IMG/VR virus record: IMGVR_UViG_3300021364_000008
Span: 1 to 64,000 of that record
Reading direction: 5' to 3' (one strand)
Source: a virus
DNA: 64,000 bases
Numbering within the stretch: the first letter of the stretch is position 1; the number at the start of each line of letters is the position of its first letter. A program made the translations under genes and the position numbers. The notes below the pieces were generated by a model, which saw only the letters and a program-made list of their open reading frames with translations, had not been told where the DNA came from and searched no databases. Shown here piece after piece: positions 1,462-26,984 of the stretch.

Positions 1462-1506
1462 AAAGAGGGGAACCTGGCAAAAACCAGGTTGACACCCCTC
1501 TTTTTT
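1462..1506 (+). terminator. Terminator with nested stems after hsp20
   Basis: An outer stem AAAGAGGGG / CCCCTCTTT encloses an inner stem AACCTGG / CCAGGTT, and a T-run follows. The four-base bulge on the 3' side, together with the end of the inner stem, spells TTGACA, the -35 box of the next promoter. Confidence 0.85.
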
Positions 1507-1516
1507 GTGGTATAAT
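1489..1516 (+). promoter_or_regulatory. Sigma70-type promoter embedded in terminator
   Basis: TTGACA (1489-1494), a 16-bp spacer and TATAAT (1511-1516) stand 22 bp before the next start codon. The -35 box lies inside the preceding terminator hairpin. This is a host-RNA-polymerase early promoter that would drive the gp43-uvsX-gp41 run. Confidence 0.85.
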
Positions 1517-1537
1517 AAATTGAGATCCAAATAGACT

Positions 1538-1894
1538 ATGACTGTAAAAATTGCTGTATTTAAATCTGGAGAGCAAGTTATTTGCGATATAAAAGAAGGA
1601 TTTGATCAAGATAAACTCATTACATATCTGTTAGAAAATCCTTGTAAAATTAAAATTAATAGTAGGCATAAGTATTCTATTAATAATGAAGATCAGAAGG
1701 AACAAATGCACATTTCTTTGGAACCTTGGCCCACTTTTTCTGGAGATTCTGTAGTTCCAATTGTTACAGACTTTTTGGTGACTGCAGTTGAACCTGCAGC
1801 AGGATTGAAAAAAATGTATGAGGAGCAATTTAAAAATGAAACCAATCAAACTGATTCTATTGATGAACAATCAGATTCTGATCAGTCAGGTTGA
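1538..1894 (+). CDS. Conserved cyanophage protein upstream of gp43
   Basis: This is a 118-residue protein without a recognised enzymatic motif. It begins TVKIAVFKSGEQVICDIKEG and has an acidic, Gln/Ser/Asp-rich C-terminal tail. The N-terminal pattern (KSGEQVICDIKE) recurs in the next gene (NNQILISQVEEV), so the two may be distant paralogues with a small SH3-like beta fold; that fold is inference. It is the first gene behind the sigma70 promoter and overlaps the next gene. Confidence 0.7.
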   Translation: MTVKIAVFKSGEQVICDIKEGFDQDKLITYLLENPCKIKINSRHKYSINNEDQKEQMHISLEPWPTFSGDSVVPIVTDFLVTAVEPAAGLKKMYEEQFKNETNQTDSIDEQSDSDQSG

Positions 1895-2093
1895 AGAAGT
1901 AACCTCTGAGCTTGGAGAACCTGATTGTAGATTAACTGAACCATTTTTAGTAGATCAATCAGGTTCAACTTTATCACCTTGGTTGATTGAGTTTACAACT
2001 GAAAATCAATATATGATATCATCAGACAAAATTATAACTCTCTCTGATCCAAAACCAACCTTACTTGAAAAATATCAGGATTTGATTAAATGA
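1836..2093 (+). CDS. Small conserved protein, gp43-adjacent
   Basis: This is an 85-residue protein of unknown function. The start at 1836 (MKPIKLILLMNNQ) was chosen because GAGGAG lies ten bases upstream. An in-frame ATG at 1818 is also possible. It overlaps the preceding gene by about 60 bases and overlaps the gp43 start by four (ATGA), so translation is probably coupled through into the polymerase. It shares an alternating hydrophobic N-terminal pattern with its neighbour. Confidence 0.6.
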   Translation: MKPIKLILLMNNQILISQVEEVTSELGEPDCRLTEPFLVDQSGSTLSPWLIEFTTENQYMISSDKIITLSDPKPTLLEKYQDLIK

Positions 2094-3565
2094 AGTTTTA
2101 TACAAACGTGCAAATGATTGGGAACAAGTTCCTAGTTCGTGGTTATGAGAATGGTGAGCACGTTATGTTCAAAGATGAATATAATCCAACACTTTATGTT
2201 AAAAGTAATAAGGAAACTAAATATAAAACATTAGATGGTGAGTATGTTGAGGCAATTCAACCGGGAACTGTGAAAGATTGTCGTGAATTTTATAAAAAGT
2301 ATGAAGGAGTTCAGAACTTTAAAATTTACGGTAATGACAGATATGTTTATCAGTATATTTCTGACAAATATCCTCAAGATGAAATTAAGTTTGATATTAA
2401 TAAAATCAAGCTTGTAACTCTTGATATTGAAGTGGGATCTGAAAATGGATTTCCTGACCCAAAAGTTTCTGATCAAGAAATTCTTCTTATTACAATTCAG
2501 GACTATTCTACTAAACAGATTATTACTTGGGGGAATGGTCCTTTTAAGAATAAGCAAAGTAATGTTTCTTATAGAGAATTTACAAATGAGTATTCTCTTC
2601 TAAATGATTTTTTATATTATTGGGAACATAATATGCCAGAAGTTGTTACTGGTTGGAATGTTCAGTTCTTTGATATTCCTTTCATTTATGGGAGATTGGA
2701 AAAAGTTCTTGGGGAAAAAAGAGCTAAATCATTTTCTCCTTGGGGATTGGTGAGTAAAGAGGAAGTATTTATCAATAATAGAACAAATTTATTGATGGAT
2801 ATTGGTGGAATTACTCAACTAGATTATCTTGATTTATATAAAAAATTTACTTATAAGGCACAAGAATCTTATCGTCTAGATCACATTGCTAATGTGGAAC
2901 TTGGGGAGAAGAAATTAGATCACTCAGAATTTGATACTTTCAAAGATTTCTACACCAATGGATGGCAAAAGTTTGTAGAATATAACATCATTGACGTGGA
3001 ACTTGTTGATAGATTGGAAGATAAGATGAAACTGATTGAACTTGCTTTAACTATGGCATTTGATGCCAAGGTTAATTTTGGAGATGTATTTTATCAGGTT
3101 CGTATGTGGGATAATATTATTTACAATTATTTGAAAAAGAGAAATATTGTAATTCCCCCAAAAGATAGGTCTGAAAAGAATGAAAAGTATGCTGGAGCTT
3201 ATGTTAAAGAACCAGTTCCTGGTATTTATGAATGGATTTTGTCTTTGGATTTGACATCTCTATATCCTTCCCTCATTATGCAATATAATATTTCTCCAGA
3301 AACTCTCCTTGATGAAAAATATTCAGGAGTATCTGTTGATAAATTATTGAATAAAGAAATTAATATTGAAAATATTGACGGAAAATGTGTATGTTCAAAT
3401 GGTTGTATGTATGATACAACTAAAAGGGGAATATTTTCAGAACTTGTGGAAAAAATTTTTAATGATAGACAGTATTTTAAAAAAGAAATGTTGAAGGAAA
3501 AAAATAGACTGGAGGAAATTGAAAGTGAATTAAAGAAAAGAGGAATTGATTTAAATACTTTATAA
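2090..3565 (+). CDS. 43A: DNA polymerase gp43, N-terminal fragment
   Basis: This is the first piece of the family B replicative polymerase. It carries the 3'-5' exonuclease motifs LDIEVGS (about residue 110), NVQFFDIPF and YNIIDVELVD, and ends shortly after polymerase motif A (DLTSLYPSLI, about residue 385). The frame stops after KKRGIDLNTL, inside the charged helical hairpin at the tip of the fingers domain. Motifs B and C are encoded by a separate frame 690 bp downstream, so neither piece alone can polymerise DNA. The stop is followed at once by a homing-endonuclease gene. Known split family B polymerases assemble non-covalently, and I infer the same here. Confidence 0.93.
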   Translation: MKFYTNVQMIGNKFLVRGYENGEHVMFKDEYNPTLYVKSNKETKYKTLDGEYVEAIQPGTVKDCREFYKKYEGVQNFKIYGNDRYVYQYISDKYPQDEIKFDINKIKLVTLDIEVGSENGFPDPKVSDQEILLITIQDYSTKQIITWGNGPFKNKQSNVSYREFTNEYSLLNDFLYYWEHNMPEVVTGWNVQFFDIPFIYGRLEKVLGEKRAKSFSPWGLVSKEEVFINNRTNLLMDIGGITQLDYLDLYKKFTYKAQESYRLDHIANVELGEKKLDHSEFDTFKDFYTNGWQKFVEYNIIDVELVDRLEDKMKLIELALTMAFDAKVNFGDVFYQVRMWDNIIYNYLKKRNIVIPPKDRSEKNEKYAGAYVKEPVPGIYEWILSLDLTSLYPSLIMQYNISPETLLDEKYSGVSVDKLLNKEINIENIDGKCVCSNGCMYDTTKRGIFSELVEKIFNDRQYFKKEMLKEKNRLEEIESELKKRGIDLNTL

Positions 3566-3588
3566 TATAAATAATAAAGAGTGTTTAA
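3551..3588 (+). promoter_or_regulatory. Late promoter inside hairpin, HNH gene in gp43
   Basis: The octamer TATAAATA (3566-3573) sits in the loop of an imperfect hairpin. Arms are 3551-3561 and 3577-3588, with one G-T pair and one bulged G. The 3' arm ends five bases before the HNH ATG at 3594. Late transcripts starting about seven bases after the octamer would lack the 5' arm. Confidence 0.7.
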
Positions 3589-3593
3589 GTCAA

Positions 3594-4268
3594 ATGAATT
3601 ATTTAAAATCTTATTGTAAGTTAATTAGAACTGCTGAAAAAAGAAATTGGAAAAGGAAAAATATTGATTTTTATATCGAAGAACATCATATTTTTCCAAT
3701 ATCAATCTATGGAAAAAATGACAGAATAGTTGGATTGACACCAAGAGAACATTTTTTGGCACATTGGTTACTTTATAAAATTTGTATGAAAAGATATGGT
3801 CTAAGAAATAATAAAACATTTAGTATGGGTTCTGCTTTTGCTATGATGTGTGTTACTAATGATTTGCAAGAAAGGAATTATACATCTAGGAAGTATGAGA
3901 TAGTTAGAAATTGTTTATCTACTATAAGAACTGGAAAGTCTAGAGACGATATGAAAGGGAAAAAATATTTTGGGGCAAGTGAAGATGTTATAAAAGAAGG
4001 TATAGAAAAGATGAGGAAAAAGAAAACGGGAATGAAGATAGAATATCCAAAAAATAGAAAATCTTCTCCCTGTTCATCAGAAAAAATAAAAAAAATATCA
4101 GAAACTAGAAAAAATACAAGAGTTAAATTTATTTCTATGAGTGAAGAAGAATTTGAATTGTGGATCTCCAAACAAAATTTTTATAGGAAAGATGGTGCGA
4201 GAAATTCAAATGTTACTCGTACATTAATGTGGAGAAATATTCCTTTGGAGAAATACTATGGGACTTGA
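3594..4268 (+). CDS. HNH homing endonuclease interrupting gp43
   Basis: The 224-residue protein has an HNH core: EEHHIFPISIYG (residues 24-35) and REHFLAHWLL (about 48-57). A Lys/Arg-rich C-terminal half contains NUMOD3-like segments (SSEKIKKISETRK). Such enzymes cut an uninterrupted copy of the target gene so that repair copies the endonuclease gene in. The flanking sequence outside the frame is under 30 bp, too little for a self-splicing intron, so this is a free-standing gene that has split the polymerase. Its last bases overlap the gp43 second-fragment start and supply that fragment's GGAG site. Confidence 0.9.
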   Translation: MNYLKSYCKLIRTAEKRNWKRKNIDFYIEEHHIFPISIYGKNDRIVGLTPREHFLAHWLLYKICMKRYGLRNNKTFSMGSAFAMMCVTNDLQERNYTSRKYEIVRNCLSTIRTGKSRDDMKGKKYFGASEDVIKEGIEKMRKKKTGMKIEYPKNRKSSPCSSEKIKKISETRKNTRVKFISMSEEEFELWISKQNFYRKDGARNSNVTRTLMWRNIPLEKYYGT

Positions 4269-5367
4269 TTATTCAAAAATTTCTACAGATGAGTTGAAAA
4301 AGCAACGTCAAAATTGTATTAAAAGTATTTCGAAATATACAAATAATCAAATGGCAAGAAAAATACAACTTAATAGTTTGTATGGGGCAATAGGAAACGC
4401 ATACTTCAGGTATTACAAACTAGCAAACGCAGAAGCAATTACTCTTTCTGGTCAACTCTCAATTCGTTGGATTGAAAATAGAATGAATCAGTTTCTAAAT
4501 AAGATTTTAAAAACTAAGGATGTAGATTATGTCATCGCATCTGACACAGATTCAATTTATCTTAATCTTGGACCTATTGTTAATAAATTTTTTAATAATA
4601 AAGTTGGGAACAAGAACAAGATTGTGGAACTCTTGGATAAGATATGTCAAGAGCAGTTTGAACCGTTCATCGAATCCAGTTATAAAGAACTTGCGTCATA
4701 TGTCAATGCATATGAGCAAAAAATGCAAATGAAGAGAGAAAATATTGCCGATCGTGGAATATGGACTGCTAAAAAAAGATATATCTTGAATGTCTGGGAT
4801 AGTGAAGGTGTTCGATATGAAGAACCTAAACTTAAGATGATGGGAATTGAAGCAGTCAAATCTTCTACTCCAGCACCTTGTCGTAAGATGATTAAAAATG
4901 CTCTTAAGTTGATGATGAGTGGTACTGAGGATGATGTAATTGATTTTATTGAGAAATGTCGCTCTCAATTTAATAAATTTTCGCCAGAAGAAATAGCATT
5001 TCCTAGAACTGTAACTGATGTGGAAAAATGGAAATCATCATCTGGAATCTATAGTAAGGGAACACCCATTCACGTTCGTGGAGCACTTCTTTTCAATCAT
5101 TATATTAAAGAGAAAAAATTAACTAACAAATACTCTTTGATTCAAAATGGCGAAAAGATTAAATTTTGCTACTTAAAAAAACCAAACATTATTCATGAGA
5201 ATGTGATATCTTTTATATCAGATTTTCCGAAGGAATTTGGTATTGACAAGTATATTGATTATGAACTACAATTTGAAAAAGCATTCTTAGAACCACTTAA
5301 ATCAATTCTTGATGCTATTGGATGGAAAACAGAAAAAACAACTAGTCTGGAGGACTTTTTTTCATAA
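4258..5367 (+). CDS. 43B: DNA polymerase gp43, C-terminal fragment
   Basis: This second piece of the polymerase (369 residues) carries motif B KIQLNSLYGAIGN (about residues 35-47), motif C ASDTDSIYLN (about 92-101) and the thumb. It ends SLEDFFS, close to the clamp-binding tail of T4 gp43. The start ATG follows GGAG by seven bases, so it has its own translation start. RGID at the end of fragment A and GLDYSKIST here are remnants of one continuous loop. It overlaps uvsX by one base. The palm aspartates of motif A and motif C are on different polypeptides. Confidence 0.93.
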   Translation: MGLDYSKISTDELKKQRQNCIKSISKYTNNQMARKIQLNSLYGAIGNAYFRYYKLANAEAITLSGQLSIRWIENRMNQFLNKILKTKDVDYVIASDTDSIYLNLGPIVNKFFNNKVGNKNKIVELLDKICQEQFEPFIESSYKELASYVNAYEQKMQMKRENIADRGIWTAKKRYILNVWDSEGVRYEEPKLKMMGIEAVKSSTPAPCRKMIKNALKLMMSGTEDDVIDFIEKCRSQFNKFSPEEIAFPRTVTDVEKWKSSSGIYSKGTPIHVRGALLFNHYIKEKKLTNKYSLIQNGEKIKFCYLKKPNIIHENVISFISDFPKEFGIDKYIDYELQFEKAFLEPLKSILDAIGWKTEKTTSLEDFFS

Positions 5368-6284
5368 TGGATTTTTTAAAGGACATTGTAAAGGAAATTG
5401 GTGACGATTACACACAACTTGCATCTGAAATTGATGAAACTGAAACTTATGTAGACACAGGTTCATATATTTTTAACGCATTAGTTTCTGGTAGTGTATT
5501 TGGTGGTGTATCTGGAAATAAAATTACTGCCATTGCTGGTGAGTCTTCTACTGGCAAAACTTTCTTTTCTCTTGCTGTTGTTAAAAATTTTCTTGATAGT
5601 AACCCAGATGGTTACTGCCTGTATTTTGATACTGAAGCAGCGATCACTAAATCTCTTTTGGAGAGTCGTGGAGTTGATACAACCAGAACTGTTGTTGTCA
5701 ATGTCGTAACAATTGAAGACTTTCGTACCAAAGCATTGAAAGCTGTAGATATCTACTTAAAGAAACCTGTAGAAGAACGCAAACCTTGTATGTTTGTGCT
5801 AGACTCTTTGGGTATGCTCTCAACTGAGAAAGAAATCAAAGATGCTCTAGATGATAAGCAAGTTCGTGATATGACCAAATCACAACTTGTAAAGGGTGCA
5901 TTCCGAATGCTAACTCTCAAGTTGGGTCAAGCAAAAATTCCAATGATTGTGACTAATCACGTATATTCCGTAATTGGACAATATGTTCCTATGCAGGAAA
6001 TGGGTGGGGGTTGTTTAGTTGCGGGAACTAAGATACAAACAGAAAATGGTTCTATTCCTATTGAATCTATTCAAGTTGGTGACAAAGTGAGAACTATGTT
6101 TGGTTATTCATCAGTTACTCACACTTTCCATTTCACCGACAAAGATGTTTATGAATTGGAATTGGAGGATGGAGAAACTATTAGATGTTCTGGTGAACAT
6201 AAATTTTTAGTAGATACTGGAGATGGTTATGAATGGAAATCTGTTACTGAGTTATTACCTTCAGATACTATCAAATCTATGTGA
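5367..6284 (+). CDS. uvsX-N: UvsX recombinase N-fragment fused to N-intein
   Basis: Residues 1-215 are the RecA-like UvsX ATPase with Walker A GESSTGKTF and Walker B MFVLDSLG. Cys216 starts a 90-residue N-intein with block A (CLVAGTKIQTENG), block B (ETIRCSGEHKFLV) and VGDKV between them. The frame stops after SDTIKSM, so the intein C-terminal blocks are not in this protein. The insertion point is after MQEMGGG, in the conserved glycine-rich DNA-binding loop region. UvsX does strand exchange in T4-type recombination-dependent replication. Function requires trans-splicing with the product starting at 6961. Confidence 0.93.
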   Translation: MDFLKDIVKEIGDDYTQLASEIDETETYVDTGSYIFNALVSGSVFGGVSGNKITAIAGESSTGKTFFSLAVVKNFLDSNPDGYCLYFDTEAAITKSLLESRGVDTTRTVVVNVVTIEDFRTKALKAVDIYLKKPVEERKPCMFVLDSLGMLSTEKEIKDALDDKQVRDMTKSQLVKGAFRMLTLKLGQAKIPMIVTNHVYSVIGQYVPMQEMGGGCLVAGTKIQTENGSIPIESIQVGDKVRTMFGYSSVTHTFHFTDKDVYELELEDGETIRCSGEHKFLVDTGDGYEWKSVTELLPSDTIKSM

Positions 6285-6289
6285 AAGTT

Positions 6290-6326
6290 GGTTCTGGACT
6301 AAATAATAATAGTTTAGTCCAGAACC
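6290..6326 (+). promoter_or_regulatory. Perfect 14-bp hairpin with late promoter, HNH gene in uvsX
   Basis: Arms 6290-6303 and 6313-6326 are perfect complements around a 9-base loop. ACTAAATA (6298-6305), a late-promoter-like octamer, spans the end of the 5' arm and the loop. The 3' arm abuts the TTG start codon of the HNH gene. A short T-run follows, so the element could also act as a weak terminator for read-through transcripts. Confidence 0.75.
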
Positions 6327-7001
6327 TTGTTTTTATCAAATAAGTATACTGATTGTTATTTCCGTATTATTAATAAGGCAAATCTTAGGAAACTTCCTCA
6401 AATTACTGAATGTCATCATATTATACCTAAATCATTAGGTGGAGGGGAAGAAGCAGAAAACAAAGTATATTTAACACCAAGAGAACATTTTGTCTGTCAC
6501 CATCTTCTTCTGAAAATGTTGGAGGGAAAATTAAAGCAGAAAATGTGTTATGCCTTTTATAATATGAAACGTAGTAATGGTAATGGTGTTAGATGTAAAA
6601 ATGTCAATTCTTATGATAGAATAAGATCACACTACTCACATCTTACTTCGGGTGAAAACAATCCATTTTATGGTAAGGGACATTATGGATTTTCTAACCC
6701 GATGTCAAACCCTGAAGTTCGGGAGAAACATAAACAAATCGTTTCTTCACCTGAACATAGAAAGAAGATGAGTGATAAAATGTCTGGTGAAAATAATCCA
6801 TTTTACGGAAGAACTCATTCAGATGAAACCAAGAAACATCTTTCTGAGTTGGCGTCTCAGAGAATAGGTAAAAACTCTCCCCGTTATGGGAAGAAACACA
6901 AACAAGTTGTTTGTGAACACTGCCAAAAACAAATCACTTACCCAATGTATAAGAGGTGGCATGGAACGAACTGTAAAATCTATAAAGAAAATAAAAACTG
7001 A
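6327..7001 (+). CDS. HNH homing endonuclease inside the uvsX split intein
   Basis: The 224-residue protein has the HNH core [13 protein letters not shown] (about residues 28-40) and [11 protein letters not shown] (about 52-62), then repeated NUMOD3-like DNA-binding motifs (SGENNPFYG twice, [11 protein letters not shown]). The start is TTG: the protein then begins MFLSNKYTD, the form I know from related phage HNH proteins, and no ATG is available. No clear Shine-Dalgarno sequence precedes it. It is a separate gene, not fused to either intein half, and its 3' end overlaps the uvsX C-fragment by 41 bases in another frame. Confidence 0.88.
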
Positions 7002-7431
7002 AGATGTTTATGACATCACTGTTGAGGGAGAACATCATTATATTCTTGATAATGGTGTTGTGTCTCATAACTCTGGTCTTAAATATGCTGCTTCTACAAT
7101 CATTTATCTTTCTAAAAAGAAGGAGAAAGATGGAACAGAAGTCATTGGAAATATTATTAAAGCAAAGACTGCAAAATCACGCTTGAGTAAAGAAAATAAG
7201 GAAGTAGAGATTCGCTTGTATTATGATGAGAGGGGGCTAGACCGATACTATGGTCTCTTGGAGCTTGGAGAAATCGGTGGACTTTGGAAAAATGTAGCAG
7301 GACGCTATGAAATTGATGGTAAGAAAATTTATGGGAAACAAATTCTTGCAGAACCTGAAAAATATTTTACGCCCGAATTAATGGAGAAACTTGATGAAAT
7401 TGCGAGACACGAATTTAGTTACGGTAAGTAA
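6961..7431 (+). CDS. uvsX-C: C-intein fused to UvsX C-fragment
   Basis: Residues 1-37 are a C-intein with block F ([16 protein letters not shown]) and block G (DNGVVSHN). The +1 extein residue is Ser38. From there [13 protein letters not shown] continues UvsX exactly where the N-fragment stops. The ATG at 6961 was chosen because GAGG lies just upstream and the C-intein then has a normal length. Splicing would join MGGG to SGLKYAAS, recreating the RecA L2-like segment. The gene overlaps the HNH gene at its 5' end and the oxygenase gene at its 3' end. Confidence 0.92.
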
Positions 7432-8080
7432 AACACCATTATCACTATTTCCAATACCTGTTGAAATCTTTAATTTTAATAATCATTATCACGATTTAAA
7501 TGTATCTTTAATTGAAGATATAATTAAAGAAAAGAATAATGATCCTTCTGGTGCTAATCACAGCAATATGTGGGGGTGGCACAGTAAAACAAATTTGGAA
7601 AGAGTTTATGAGAGTTTTACTAGACTCAAAGATATAATTGAATCATGTGGAAATGAGTATTGTAAACAGTATGGATATAAAGATGGTTTAGTATGCTCAG
7701 ATCTTTGGGCAAATGTGAATGGTCCTAATGATTTAAATTTTAATCATCACCACGGAACTTCTGCTCTTGCTGGTGTTTATTATCCAGTCGAATCAATACT
7801 TGACTGTGGTTGTATTTTCAACTACACTAATAATAACCCATTAAAAGGTGGCACTTGGAATAATGTTGATGGGGGATCTCTTGTTTTTCAAGATCCTTCC
7901 TACGGAAAGAAAATCCATCTCATAAAGGATAAAGATTCTCCGTATAATGTAGATTTTTATCATTTATATCCAACTTCTGGAGTTTTGGTTTTATTTCCAA
8001 CCTACTTATTGCATAGTGTACTTCCATTCAGAGATGATAAAACTAGGGTAAGTATATCTTTTGCATTTATCTATGGATAA
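7394..8080 (+). CDS. 2OG-Fe(II) oxygenase
   Basis: This is a putative 2-oxoglutarate/iron dioxygenase of the type common in cyanophages. [15 protein letters not shown] and the distal HSVLPF...TRVSISFAF blocks match the double-stranded beta-helix family in which the first motif and the distal His bind iron and the Arg binds 2-oxoglutarate. Length (about 228) is normal. The start is uncertain: ATG 7394 overlaps uvsX-C by 38 bases, and the family-like sequence begins about ten residues later. The substrate is unknown. It overlaps gp41-N by eight bases. Confidence 0.78.
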
Positions 8081-8702
8081 AATTGAATTTTTAATATTGA
8101 AGTGTCTTATTAACAATGAAGAATATGCTAGAAAAGTTTTACCCTTTATTAAGGAAGAATATTTTGAAGAATTTGAGCAAAAGGTAGTATTTCAAGAAAT
8201 TTCTAAGTTTATTCTTGAGTATAATAAAATTCCCACAAAGCAAATTCTTGATATTGAAGTTGAAAAACGTAATGATATCAATGGAGATCAATATAAATCC
8301 ATAAGCCAACTAGTTGATAATCTTGATGAAATTGCTGTTGAATATAAATGGTTGATTGATTGTACAGAAAAATGGTGTAGAGATCGTGCAATTTATCTTG
8401 CCCTGATTGAATCTATTCAACTGGTAGATGATAAGGGTGATAAAAATAGAGATGCAATTCCATCAATATTGCAAGATGCTCTTTCAGTTTCATTTGACAA
8501 TCACGTAGGCCATGATTATCTTCAGGACTACAAAGGAAGATTTGAATTTTATAATAAAAAGGAGGAACGAGTTGAATTTGATTTGGAATATTTTAACAAA
8601 ATTACCAAAGGTGGTCTCCCTAATAAAACTCTCAATATCGCACTTGCTGGTTGTGTTCACCCAGAAACCAAAGTTAAGATTAGATTTAGGAAGATTTCTT
8701 GA
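8073..8702 (+). CDS. 41-N: Replicative helicase gp41 N-fragment with 16-residue N-intein
   Basis: Residues 1-193 are the N-terminal domain and linker of the DnaB-like helicase gp41, ending NKTLNIALAG just before the Walker A loop. Cys194 begins CVHPETKVKIRFRKIS and the frame stops after these 16 residues. CVHPETKV matches intein block A. The rest of the intein and the ATPase domain are encoded from 9389. An N-intein this short identifies the atypical split class. The last 17 bases overlap, in antisense, the end of the HNH gene. Without splicing the helicase has no complete P-loop. Confidence 0.9.
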   Translation: MDKIEFLILKCLINNEEYARKVLPFIKEEYFEEFEQKVVFQEISKFILEYNKIPTKQILDIEVEKRNDINGDQYKSISQLVDNLDEIAVEYKWLIDCTEKWCRDRAIYLALIESIQLVDDKGDKNRDAIPSILQDALSVSFDNHVGHDYLQDYKGRFEFYNKKEERVEFDLEYFNKITKGGLPNKTLNIALAGCVHPETKVKIRFRKIS

Positions 8703-9354
8703 TTTTGGAGTTTGGTGCTGGTTCTCCTGTTCCAAATTTCCAACCTTCGTTTAATTTAGTATCAACATCTTCTGGAAGTATTCTTTTCCATCCTTTTGTT
8801 CCTGGTAAGTGCATTACCTTTTTGCCTTTGTGTGCCTTTCCTCCAAGAGATGCTCTTTCCCTTCTTCCTTGATTTGATGCCCAGTAATTAAATTCTTTTG
8901 ATGCTCTCTTTTTTCCTCCAAGAGATGCTCTTTCTTTTCTGCCTTCTTCTGTGCTCCAATAATAAAAATTTTTAACTTTATTGTTTAGATATTCTTGTTT
9001 TTGAGTTTCTATTCCTTTAATCATCCATTCTTTTCTTTCTTCTACTGGTGTTGAAAAGAAACCAAGTTGATTATCTCTACAAAACTCTCCAATTATTTTT
9101 CTATGTTGTGGTGATAAATTAGCACCTAACATTTTCATAGATCTTAAATCATTTGGATTTTTGTAAATCTTCCAAAGTAAATAGTGTGCTATGATGTGTT
9201 CTCTAACATTCAAGTATGTGAGGTTGCAATCATCATCTGTTCCTCCCATATGTTTAGGAACAATATGATGCTCGTGTAGTCCTGAATATTTCTTATAGTT
9301 TTCTCTTCTTAACTTATTGCCTTCGCATAAGTTAGAATAGATACGATCAAACAT
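8686..9354 (-). CDS. HNH homing endonuclease, antisense, within split gp41
   Basis: This is the only convincing protein gene on the minus strand in this window. It encodes 222 residues with HNH core LHEHHIVPKHMGGT (about residues 26-39) and REHIIAHYLLW (about 52-62). Three related C-terminal repeats follow (EEGRKERASLGGK, NQGRRERASLGGK), which are probably NUMOD-type DNA-binding units. A GGGACAGGGA stretch precedes the ATG. It lies between the two halves of a fractured helicase gene but is transcribed against them and converges on gp41-N with a 17-base overlap. Confidence 0.9.
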   Translation of the reverse strand: MFDRIYSNLCEGNKLRRENYKKYSGLHEHHIVPKHMGGTDDDCNLTYLNVREHIIAHYLLWKIYKNPNDLRSMKMLGANLSPQHRKIIGEFCRDNQLGFFSTPVEERKEWMIKGIETQKQEYLNNKVKNFYYWSTEEGRKERASLGGKKRASKEFNYWASNQGRRERASLGGKAHKGKKVMHLPGTKGWKRILPEDVDTKLNEGWKFGTGEPAPNSKIKKSS

Positions 9355-9376
9355 TCCCTGTCCCTGCTACTGTTAT

Positions 9377-9384
9377 TATTTATA
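9377..9384 (-). promoter_or_regulatory. Late promoter for the antisense HNH gene
   Basis: TATAAATA on the minus strand lies 22 bases upstream of the HNH start codon at 9354. Unlike the + strand endonuclease genes, no hairpin spans it. Confidence 0.75.
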
Positions 9385-9388
9385 TAAA

Positions 9389-10561
9389 ATGTGGATTGAA
9401 AAAGAAACATCAATTGCTGAAATCAAAACATTACTTGATAATGGATATGAGGTAGAAGTTGATTCGCCTGATGGATATGTTCCAGTCAATTTCTTTATTA
9501 ACAAAGGAATGTATGATGAATATGTTTTAAAGGTTGATGGTGAAGAACCAATTAGGTGTAATGCCGATCATTTATTTGAAACATCTTTTGGGTGGATGAA
9601 AGCATCGCATCTTTTTGAAAAATATAAGACAAATCATTTTTTAACTAAAAATGATTATAAACTTGGTAGTGTCTTTAAAACAGGAAATCAAATACCTATT
9701 GTTGATATTAATGTAAATCACCCAAATCATAGGTATTATACTAATGGTGTTTCTTCTCATAATACTGGTGTGGGTAAATCTCTATTCATGTGCCATGTGG
9801 CTAGCTCCGTCTTGCTCCAAGGGAGGAATGTACTCTACATTACAATGGAAATGGCAGAGGAGAAAATTGCTGAGCGAATTGATGCAAACCTTTTAAATAT
9901 CCCAATTCAGCAATTGACAGATCTTCCAAAGTCAATGTTTGAAACCAAAGTTACAAACATTTCTAAAAAAACTCAGGGAACTTTTATAATTAAAGAGTAT
10001 CCAACTGCTTCTGCACATGCTGGACACTTTAAATCACTTCTTAATGAACTTGCACTTAAGAAATCATTTAGACCTGATATTATTTTCATTGATTACCTTA
10101 ATATTTGTGCTTCCTCTAGATATAGGGGAAACCTTTCTGTCAATTCTTATTCGTATATTAAGGCAATTGCTGAAGAACTTCGAGGATTGGCGGTGGAATT
10201 CAATGTCCCCATCGTTTCTGCTACTCAAACCACTCGCAGTGGTTATGGTAGTTCTGATGTTGAACTTACTGATACTTCTGAATCCTTTGGTCTCCCTGCT
10301 ACTGCTGATCTTATGTTTGCCCTTATTAGCACTGAAGAGTTGGAGGAGTTGGGGCAGATTATGGTAAAGCAACTGAAGAATCGTTATGCTTCAACTGATA
10401 AATATAGAAGGTTCGTCTTAGGAATTGATAGGTCAAAAATGAGATTATATGACTGCGAGCAATCAGCTCAAGAAGATATTCTTGACAACAGCAAAGAAGA
10501 CGAGTATGATTTCCATGAGGAAAACAAACCCAAGAAAACATTTGAAGGATTTAAATTCTAA
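9389..10561 (+). CDS. 41-C: 125-residue C-intein fused to gp41 helicase C-domain
   Basis: Residues 1-125 are a large C-intein: block B EEPIRCNADHLFE, block F PIVDINVNHPNHRYY and block G TNGVSSHN. Thr126 is the +1 residue and starts TGVGKSLFMCHVA, the Walker A loop. The rest is the RecA-type helicase core with IIFIDYLNICASS (Walker B) and PIVSATQTTRSGYG. Joined to the N-fragment the loop reads ALAG-TGVGKS. No clear Shine-Dalgarno precedes ATG 9389, and the sequence there is AT-rich. T4 gp41 unwinds the fork and carries the gp61 primase. Confidence 0.92.
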   Translation: MWIEKETSIAEIKTLLDNGYEVEVDSPDGYVPVNFFINKGMYDEYVLKVDGEEPIRCNADHLFETSFGWMKASHLFEKYKTNHFLTKNDYKLGSVFKTGNQIPIVDINVNHPNHRYYTNGVSSHNTGVGKSLFMCHVASSVLLQGRNVLYITMEMAEEKIAERIDANLLNIPIQQLTDLPKSMFETKVTNISKKTQGTFIIKEYPTASAHAGHFKSLLNELALKKSFRPDIIFIDYLNICASSRYRGNLSVNSYSYIKAIAEELRGLAVEFNVPIVSATQTTRSGYGSSDVELTDTSESFGLPATADLMFALISTEELEELGQIMVKQLKNRYASTDKYRRFVLGIDRSKMRLYDCEQSAQEDILDNSKEDEYDFHEENKPKKTFEGFKF

Positions 10562-10562
10562 T

Positions 10563-10973
10563 ATGACTAAAGAAATTGATACTAAAAAGTACATCGAATT
10601 TGTTTCTAAAACTACAAGTGCTCCAAGTTCTGATTATGCTGCACTTATGACTCGACTGACTCAACTAGAAACAGAAGATGCAAATGTTCCAAAACTTATG
10701 ACTGCCGCATTTGGACTTTCTGCTGAAGCAGGTGAATTTACTGAAGTTGTAAAAAAGATTTTCCTTCAAGGCAAACCATACAATGAAGAAAATGTATTTC
10801 ATATGAAAAGAGAACTTGGAGATATTTGTTGGTACATGGCCCAAGCATGTATGGCACTTGATACTTCATTTGAAGAACTGATGCAAATGAATTATGAGAA
10901 GCTAAGTGCAAGATATCCAGAAGGAACTTTTGATGTATGGCGTTCTGAAAATCGTAAGGATGGAGATCTTTAA
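10563..10973 (+). CDS. mazG: MazG-like nucleotide pyrophosphohydrolase
   Basis: The 136-residue protein carries the all-alpha NTP pyrophosphohydrolase pattern: FGLSAEAGEFTEVVKK supplies the ExxE metal ligands and MKRELGDICWYMAQ the ExxD pair. MazG is a widespread cyanophage auxiliary protein, proposed to hydrolyse nucleotides or alarmones. The ATG at 10563 lies one base after the gp41 stop. It ends at a terminator and is the last gene of this early run. Confidence 0.88.
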   Translation: MTKEIDTKKYIEFVSKTTSAPSSDYAALMTRLTQLETEDANVPKLMTAAFGLSAEAGEFTEVVKKIFLQGKPYNEENVFHMKRELGDICWYMAQACMALDTSFEELMQMNYEKLSARYPEGTFDVWRSENRKDGDL

Positions 10974-10978
10974 TACTT

Positions 10979-10999
10979 AGACCCTTAAGGGTCTTTTTT
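10979..10999 (+). terminator. Intrinsic terminator after mazG
   Basis: Perfect 6-bp stem AGACCC / GGGTCT with loop TTAA, then a T-run whose last T starts the TATAAATA late promoter. Confidence 0.85.
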
Positions 11000-11007
11000 T
11001 ATAAATA
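11000..11007 (+). promoter_or_regulatory. Late promoter TATAAATA
   Basis: A perfect octamer directly fused to the preceding terminator T-run, 27 bases before the start codon of the internal-protein gene. Confidence 0.85.
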
Positions 11008-24587: not shown

Positions 24588-25322
24588 ATGTATTATGTTT
24601 ACGAATTAATAGACCCGAGAGTTAATCTTCCTTTTTATGTTGGAAAGGGGAAAGACAAACGGGTCTATTTTCATTTGTCTGAAAAATCAAGGGCAAAAAG
24701 TGAAAACAAGAGGAAATATAATAAGATACAAAAAATGAGAGAAAATGGATGTGAACCTGAAATAAAAATAGTAAAATATTTTGAAAATGAGAATGATGCT
24801 TATGATTACGAGGAACTATTAATAGAAAAATATGGAAGAATAAGATATGATGAAAATGGAATATTAACAAATATTTGTGAAAGTTCCAGACCACCTAAGC
24901 ATAAAGGAAAAACATATCAAGAAATATATGGAGATAAGTGGGAAGAACAAATTCAAAAAAGAATGAAAACAAAAGAAAAGAGAGGAAACTATGGTGGAGT
25001 GAGAAAACATACAGAAGAAACTAAGAGAAAAATAAGTGAAAAAGTAGCAGGAAAAAATAATCCAAGTTATGGTGTTCCTTGTAGTGAAGAACGAAAAAGA
25101 AAAATAAGTGAAAGAGCAAAAGAAAGATTTGCTGGAGGTTTTAAATCGCCATCATCAGTAACTTATCTTCTAACAAGTCCTTCTGGGGAAAAATTTGAGG
25201 TGTTTGGAGAACTTAAAAAGTTTTGTAAATCTCAAAACATTTCTTATGCTACTATGCACGCAGCAATACTTTATGAAAGAAAGGGGCCAAGAAGAAATGG
25301 ATGGAGTATTGAGAAAGTTTAG
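24588..25322 (+). CDS. GIY-YIG homing endonuclease after nrdB
   Basis: The 244-residue protein has an N-terminal GIY-YIG nuclease: MYYVYELIDP and PFYVGKGKDKRVYFHL, with a catalytic-type Glu in YEELLIEKYG. Two NUMOD3-like repeats follow (HTEETKRKISEKVAGKNNPS and CSEERKRKISERAKERF), then a helix-turn-helix end (FGELKKFCKSQNISYATMHA). It is free-standing, next to a gene type (nrd) often targeted by such elements. Its 3' end overlaps the next gene by 26 bases. Confidence 0.9.
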   Translation: MYYVYELIDPRVNLPFYVGKGKDKRVYFHLSEKSRAKSENKRKYNKIQKMRENGCEPEIKIVKYFENENDAYDYEELLIEKYGRIRYDENGILTNICESSRPPKHKGKTYQEIYGDKWEEQIQKRMKTKEKRGNYGGVRKHTEETKRKISEKVAGKNNPSYGVPCSEERKRKISERAKERFAGGFKSPSSVTYLLTSPSGEKFEVFGELKKFCKSQNISYATMHAAILYERKGPRRNGWSIEKV

Positions 25323-26405: not shown

Positions 26406-26984
26406 ATGATACACAGACATCATATTATTCCAAGACATATGGGTGGTGATGATAGTGAGGGAAATATTGTGGAATTGCCTTATTGGGCACATATAGAAGT
26501 TCATAAAAGATTGTGGGAAGTGTGTGGAAGGTTGGAAGATAAACTTGCATATTGTATGCTTTCGGGAAAAACAGAAGAGGCTGAAAAAGTAAGAATAGAA
26601 CTTGCCAAAACAAAATATCAAAAATGGTTAAAAGAAAAACCAGAAGAAGTTGAAAGGTGGAAGAAAAATATTAGCAAATCCAAAAAAGGAGTAAAATGTC
26701 TTCCTGATGAACACTATAAAAAACTTGGTAATGATTTAAAAGGTATTCCAAGAAGTCAAGAAGTTAGAGATAAAATTAGTAAAGCAAAGAAAGGAAAATC
26801 TGTTGCCCAACCAAATCAAATGAAAACTTATGAAATTATAAAACCTAATGGTGAAGTTTTGATTGTTAAAGGATTGAATGAGTTTTGTAAAAATGAAGGA
26901 ATTGATGCTTCAAATATGTGTAATGTTGCTAAAGGAAAGTTTAAGCAACATAAAGGATACAAGTGTAGATTAATAAATACCTAA
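26406..26984 (+). CDS. HNH homing endonuclease
   Basis: The 192-residue protein starts at the HNH motif itself (MIHRHHIIPRHMGGDDSEGN and WAHIEVHKRLW). NUMOD3-like repeats follow (SKSKKGVKCLP and DKISKAKKGK), then a C-terminal helix-turn-helix (LNEFCKNEGIDASNMCNVAK). It lacks the short N-terminal extension of the other HNH proteins here, so it may be slightly truncated. It follows the SegE-like gene and precedes the ADP-ribosyltransferase-like gene. Confidence 0.85.
   Translation: MIHRHHIIPRHMGGDDSEGNIVELPYWAHIEVHKRLWEVCGRLEDKLAYCMLSGKTEEAEKVRIELAKTKYQKWLKEKPEEVERWKKNISKSKKGVKCLPDEHYKKLGNDLKGIPRSQEVRDKISKAKKGKSVAQPNQMKTYEIIKPNGEVLIVKGLNEFCKNEGIDASNMCNVAKGKFKQHKGYKCRLINT
26972..26979 (+). promoter_or_regulatory. 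Late-promoter variant AATAAATA
   Basis: The octamer lies 19 bases before the ADP-ribosyltransferase-like gene, inside the end of the HNH gene. Confidence 0.55.

What the first reader, a model, noticed from the sequence alone, without database searches (positions are those of the whole stretch)
5367..7431. uvsX recombinase rebuilt by a conventional split intein with a free-standing HNH gene between the halves
The N-intein (90 residues, Cys1) and C-intein (37 residues, ending SHN then Ser) have all splicing blocks, and their exteins join at a conserved glycine-rich loop. Between them is an independent HNH gene with its own start. This is the fractured-gene plan described from ocean metagenomes, here in the strand-exchange gene.
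Basis: partly seen in the sequence, partly recalled or inferred. Interest (0 to 1): 0.85.

Follow-up and report, generated by a model that had tools for sequence, protein, structure and literature searches.

The report
Recombinase gene split by homing intein
In this cyanobacterial-virus genome the gene for the DNA-pairing enzyme UvsX is cut into two genes with a DNA-cutting enzyme gene between them, and each half carries half of a self-splicing protein (an intein) that should rejoin the enzyme; this is a known kind of parasite, but relatives show the same intein with and without the cutting gene, including one case where the break seems to have healed.

Summary
Confirmed at the stated coordinates. 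UvsX is encoded as N-extein plus a 90-aa N-intein (stop 6282-6284), an HNH/NUMOD3 gene (TTG 6327-7001), and a C-half (ATG 6961) with a 37-aa C-intein ending HN|S. The exteins join exactly as in intein-less cyanophage UvsX ([13 protein letters not shown]), at the RecA L2 loop. It is not an assembly error: 23 other IMG/VR contigs share the fracture. Intein and HNH are under purifying selection, and the element moves horizontally (98% DNA identity in the N-intein against 74-78% in the exteins). It is a new member of a known kind, the fractured gene with split intein. The same UvsX site is split in cultured T4-like phages with other endonuclease genes, and in metagenomic phages with various genes or nothing between the halves. 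The most unusual result is in relatives L090/L091: the halves are fused into one continuous mini-intein, DNA-identical to a split relative except one base at the junction, still carrying the HNH gene's 3' tail and old ribosome-binding site in another frame. A fractured gene apparently healed by deletion. Splicing and cleavage are inferred, not shown.

The parts
5367..6011 (+). UvsX N-extein (215 aa), ends EMGGG
   Evidence: Pfam RecA 3.7e-11; 91% identical to Synechococcus phage S-T4 UvsX
6012..6281 (+). N-intein, 90 aa, Cys1, block B His in GEHKF
   Evidence: TIGR01445 above cut-off; alignment across UvsX inteins keeps C1, G23, H63
6282..6284 (+). TGA stop ending the N-half
   Evidence: a stop at or shortly after this point in the fractured homologues
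6290..6326 (+). 15-bp RNA hairpin just before the HNH start, with invariant TAAATA (6300-6305), possible late promoter
   Evidence: -23.2 kcal/mol, z -7.4; one compensatory pair, stem decayed in two relatives, TAAATA invariant in 13/13
6327..7001 (+). free-standing HNH/NUMOD3 homing endonuclease gene (TTG start; Zn-finger-like tail CEHC...RWHGTNC)
   Evidence: NUMOD3 9.6e-18; ATG at the same point in sister clade; purifying selection
6951..6957 (+). AAGAGGT, likely ribosome-binding site of the C-half
   Evidence: conserved in homologues
6961..7071 (+). C-intein, 37 aa, blocks F and G, ends SHN
   Evidence: TIGR01443 6.3e-8
7072..7431 (+). UvsX C-extein, starts Ser+1 GLKYAAS
   Evidence: about 75-90% identical to C-exteins of the related loci; joins N-extein exactly as in intein-less S-T4 UvsX

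Best explanation
This is a mobile element sitting in the uvsX gene of a T4-like cyanophage. The two uvsX half-genes are translated separately. The 90-aa N-intein and 37-aa C-intein find each other, fold as one gp41-1-like splicing domain and splice in trans (Cys1 to Ser+1, with Asn cyclisation), rejoining UvsX in the L2 loop. The HNH gene between them is expressed on its own, probably late, behind a hairpin. Its enzyme cuts intein-less uvsX alleles so that recombination copies in the whole intein-HNH unit. Shown here: anatomy, extein junction, homology, purifying selection, horizontal transfer. Inferred: splicing, cleavage, late control.
For: Splicing domains in both halves. Exteins join exactly as in intein-less UvsX, and the junction maps to RecA TGG|NALKF in L2. 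23 further contigs carry the same fracture. dN/dS is low for N-intein (0.05-0.27), C-intein (0.03-0.11) and HNH (up to 0.17). Mobility: against L083, N-intein 97.8% and HNH 92.7% identical in DNA, exteins 74-77%. Same site split in other phages with other genes between. The hairpin before the HNH start resembles control reported for T4 I-TevI, segB and Aeh1 mobE (PMC2988022).
Against: No splicing or cleavage data exist for this element. The HNH domain match to Pfam is weak (0.028). The hairpin's covariation is slight (one compensated pair) and two relatives have lost much of the stem. The HNH start is TTG with no clear ribosome-binding site. A single-sequence AlphaFold model of the fused form is poor (pLDDT 56).
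Confidence: 0.9

Rival explanations
1. The halves do not splice; they assemble non-covalently into a working two-subunit recombinase, as split gp43 of Aeromonas phage 25 and split NrdA of Aeh1 do, and the intein halves are relics.
For: Two-subunit enzymes after endonuclease insertion are documented (PMC2988022); in this same window gp43 is split by an HNH-like gene with no intein.
Against: Both intein halves keep the catalytic residues and show purifying selection. Unspliced chains would carry 90 and 37 extra residues in loop L2.
Confidence: 0.05
2. Sequencing or assembly error: one continuous intein with an embedded HNH domain is really present.
For: N-intein and HNH happen to share a reading frame.
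Against: 23 other contigs show the same break; several in-frame stops lie between 6282 and 6326; the C-half is in another frame; the HNH start is ATG in a sister clade.
Confidence: 0.01
3. The intein is spliced but the HNH gene is a passive passenger or cuts elsewhere; the unit spreads by ordinary phage recombination.
For: Cleavage is untested; free-standing T4 endonucleases often cut at distant sites (PMC2988022); several relatives keep the split intein with no endonuclease gene.
Against: HNH is under purifying selection and shares the intein's high identity across diverged exteins.
Confidence: 0.15

Closest known systems
Fractured genes with split inteins (Dassa et al. 2009; known to me from memory and from citing papers, text not held)
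   Same: DNA-metabolism enzyme gene broken by a split intein with a free-standing endonuclease gene between the halves, in phages
   Different: Host gene is uvsX; endonuclease is HNH/NUMOD3, not the Vsr-like type; I could not check whether uvsX is among that paper's eight enzyme types
gp41-1 split intein (PDB 6qaz)
   Same: Same domain by sequence, E = 6e-13 over nearly the whole length; N-part of similar length
   Different: Sits in gp41 helicase; only about 50 bits of similarity
Split UvsX inteins of cultured T4-like phages (HY03, SEA1, Thanatos-1, EniLVp02, Pm5461)
   Same: Same UvsX site, GG|C...HN|TG, and intein broken after 96 residues
   Different: Different NUMOD3 gene between the halves: GIY-YIG by Pfam in Thanatos-1, GIY-YIG-like only by eye in the others; +1 residue Thr; N-intein about 40% identical; annotated as plain recombination proteins
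T4 I-TevI, segB and Aeh1 mobE regulation (PMC2988022)
   Same: Strong hairpin before the endonuclease start with a late-promoter-like TAAATA in it
   Different: Promoter and translational control not tested here; no clear ribosome-binding site in the stem

Membership tests
Fractured gene with split intein | Conserved enzyme coding region broken in two | tested here: met
   UvsX halves match RecA and intact cyanophage UvsX; junction exact
Fractured gene with split intein | Intein halves flank the break | tested here: met
   TIGR01445 and TIGR01443 above cut-off
Fractured gene with split intein | Free-standing endonuclease gene between the halves | tested here: met
   HNH/NUMOD3 ORF with conserved start position
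Fractured gene with split intein | Endonuclease cuts the intein-less allele | not testable with these tools
   needs a cleavage assay
Class 1 split intein | Nucleophilic residue 1, block B His, C-terminal HN, Ser/Thr/Cys +1 | tested here: met
   Cys1, His63, SHN, Ser+1; kept in the aligned homologues
Class 1 split intein | Trans-splicing activity | not testable with these tools
   needs a co-expression assay
Mobile (homing) intein | Element moves between alleles independently of the host gene | tested here: met
   97.8% DNA identity in N-intein against 74-77% in exteins, window versus L083; L090 versus L083 269/270 and 126/126 against 77-79%
I-TevI-like late control | Hairpin hides the start site; late promoter inside it | tested here: inconclusive
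   hairpin strong but weakly covarying; TAAATA invariant; no transcript data
Group I intron | Intron RNA core in the uvsX, gp43 or gp41 breaks | tested here: not met
   no Rfam match up to E = 1 in 1500-11000

The most novel reading that the evidence does not exclude
Fractured genes are reversible. At this UvsX site the intein passes between states: split with an endonuclease gene, split without it, and re-fused into one continuous mini-intein by an in-frame deletion that turns the endonuclease gene's tail into the intein's linker. L090/L091 is a very recent healing event, with intein DNA identical to a split relative except one base at the junction.
Probability: 0.75. Interest if true: 0.6.

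Novelty: new member of a known kind. Interest (0 to 1): 0.5.

Why it matters
UvsX performs the strand exchange that T4-type homing needs, so this parasite has broken, at a DNA-binding loop, the enzyme its own spread relies on, and must splice to survive. Its relatives show one intein site occupied by split inteins with different endonuclease genes, split inteins that lost the endonuclease, and a re-fused mini-intein. That makes the question of how split inteins arise and revert directly testable with nearly identical natural pairs (L083 split, L090 continuous). It also adds untested split inteins for protein engineering.

Tried and rejected
Assembly error: rejected by 23 homologous contigs. 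Group I intron in the breaks: no Rfam match. Published account of UvsX split inteins: none found in the held library; Dassa 2009 is not held, and I recall from memory only, unverified, a reported 'VidaL UvsX' intein, so I claim no priority for uvsX as host. L090 as pre-insertion ancestor: judged unlikely because its linker encodes, in another frame, the HNH tail [18 protein letters not shown], a motif shared with an HNH gene at an unrelated place (L193). AlphaFold of the fused intein alone: too poor to use. Alignment A2 of fragments with the fused form: misaligned, not used. The Vsr-like look of the genes in L170/L171 was not confirmed by Pfam. The hairpin as a plain terminator: possible, not excluded.

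Full report
Check of the observation. The window is part of a 99-kb IMG/VR virus record. Its UvsX is closest to T4-like cyanophages: the N-extein is 91% identical to that of Synechococcus phage S-T4. The N-half (5367-6284) carries 215 residues of UvsX, then 90 residues of intein starting at Cys, then TGA. The C-half starts at ATG 6961, behind AAGAGGT, with 37 intein residues ending SHN, then Ser and the rest of UvsX to 7431. Pfam and NCBIfam find RecA plus an N-terminal intein region in one half and a C-terminal intein region in the other. Between them lies an HNH/NUMOD3 gene, TTG 6327-7001; NUMOD3 is clear (9.6e-18), the HNH domain match is weak (0.028).

Junction. S-T4 UvsX reads [13 protein letters not shown] without interruption; the exteins here join to exactly that. 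Aligned with RecA, the insertion falls between TGG and NALKF, the end of loop L2 (that this loop binds DNA is established knowledge of RecA). The element therefore sits in a functionally critical spot, as is usual for homing elements.

Not an artefact. 23 other IMG/VR contigs carry the same fractured arrangement, with 70% to 99% identity in the N-intein. After the first stop come more stops in the same frame, and the C-half is in another frame. One clade has ATG where the window has TTG as HNH start, which supports an independent gene. One contig (L097) has a stop inside the HNH gene.

Selection and mobility. Between the window and its relatives dN/dS is 0.05-0.27 for the N-intein, up to 0.17 for HNH and 0.03-0.11 for the C-intein (synonymous sites are often saturated, so the values are rough). 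Against L083 and L087 the N-intein is 97.8% identical in DNA and HNH about 93%, while the exteins are only 74-78% identical: the element moved between diverged phages. In L094-L096 HNH and C-intein are 87-88% identical to the window but the N-intein only 76%, so recombination also cuts within the element.

Control region. A 15-bp hairpin (6290-6326, -23.2 kcal/mol, z -7.4) ends right at the HNH start. Covariation is slight: one compensated pair, 82.6% of cells paired. Two relatives (L098, L104) have lost much of the stem, yet TAAATA in it is invariant in all 13. A TAAATA-bearing hairpin also precedes the different endonuclease gene in Vibrio phage EniLVp02. This resembles the late promoter plus hairpin control described for I-TevI, segB and mobE (PMC2988022), but I have no transcript evidence.

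The same site elsewhere. Split inteins sit at the same UvsX position, GG|C...HN|(S/T)G, in cultured phages: Escherichia HY03, Salmonella SEA1, Shewanella Thanatos-1, Vibrio EniLVp02 and Proteus Pm5461. All have a NUMOD3 gene between the halves; Pfam confirms GIY-YIG in Thanatos-1 only, the others look GIY-YIG-like by eye. 26 cultured records match the HY03-type junction over at least 80% of the query, SCTP-2 (continuous) among them. In metagenomic phages the gap holds HNH-like genes (L169, L175, L180, L182, L183, L186, L189, L190), larger genes of unconfirmed type (L170, L171), or no endonuclease gene (L173/L174, L179, L181, L184, L187, L191). L181 keeps, in another frame, the tail GNIKRWHNDNCKEKR of an HNH gene, so it probably lost one. 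Salicola phage SCTP-2 has a continuous mini-intein at this site.

The healed relative. L090 and L091, near-identical contigs from two samples (6 differences in 8.3 kb), have a continuous mini-intein at the site. Compared with fractured L083, the N-intein is identical in 269 of 270 bases (the one change is at the junction) and the tail plus C-intein in 126 of 126, while exteins are 77-79% identical. The junction fits one in-frame deletion of about 660 bases removing the stop, hairpin and most of HNH. The linker still holds AAGAGGTGGCATG, the former start site, and in another frame [18 protein letters not shown], the HNH tail. The same overlap of HNH tail and C-intein start is present in the outgroup L169 (tree, where L090 groups inside the fractured clade), so the fractured state is older and L090 is most likely derived. 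These phages also carry a second fractured intein 11 residues upstream, with its HNH gene on the opposite strand, also seen in L007/L008.

Known or new. By anatomy and inferred mechanism this is a fractured gene with a split intein, a known kind. The nearest solved structure by sequence is the gp41-1 intein. No held paper describes UvsX split inteins, but the key paper is not held and uvsX may be listed there, so I rate it a new member of a known kind. The evolutionary series at this site, above all the healed case, is the part a specialist would find new.

Noticed in passing
window 8061-10561: gp41 helicase gene is also fractured: the N-half ends with a 16-residue N-intein (CVHPETKVKIRFRKIS), an HNH gene on the opposite strand (8686-9354) follows, and the C-half carries the remaining intein ending SHN|T. 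The ultra-short N-intein is the layout reported for the VidaL intein (PMC13014065).
   Followed up: partly
window 2090-5367: gp43 DNA polymerase is split into two genes with an HNH-like gene (3594-4268) between and no intein; so three successive replication/recombination genes are broken.
   Followed up: partly
L006/L090/L091 and L007/L008: A second split-intein site in UvsX, after residue 204 and 11 residues upstream of the first, with an HNH gene on the opposite strand; L090/L091 carry inteins at both sites.
   Followed up: partly
L094-L096: Mosaic element: HNH and C-intein close to the window, N-intein much more distant, suggesting exchange within the intein.
   Followed up: no
L117 (Salicola phage SCTP-2), 1403-3373: One UvsX-like gene with two continuous mini-inteins, one at the P-loop and one at the L2 site.
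   Followed up: no
window 25002-25109 and 26751-26798; record 80205-80417: Further NUMOD3 matches elsewhere in the same virus record, probably more homing endonuclease genes.
   Followed up: no
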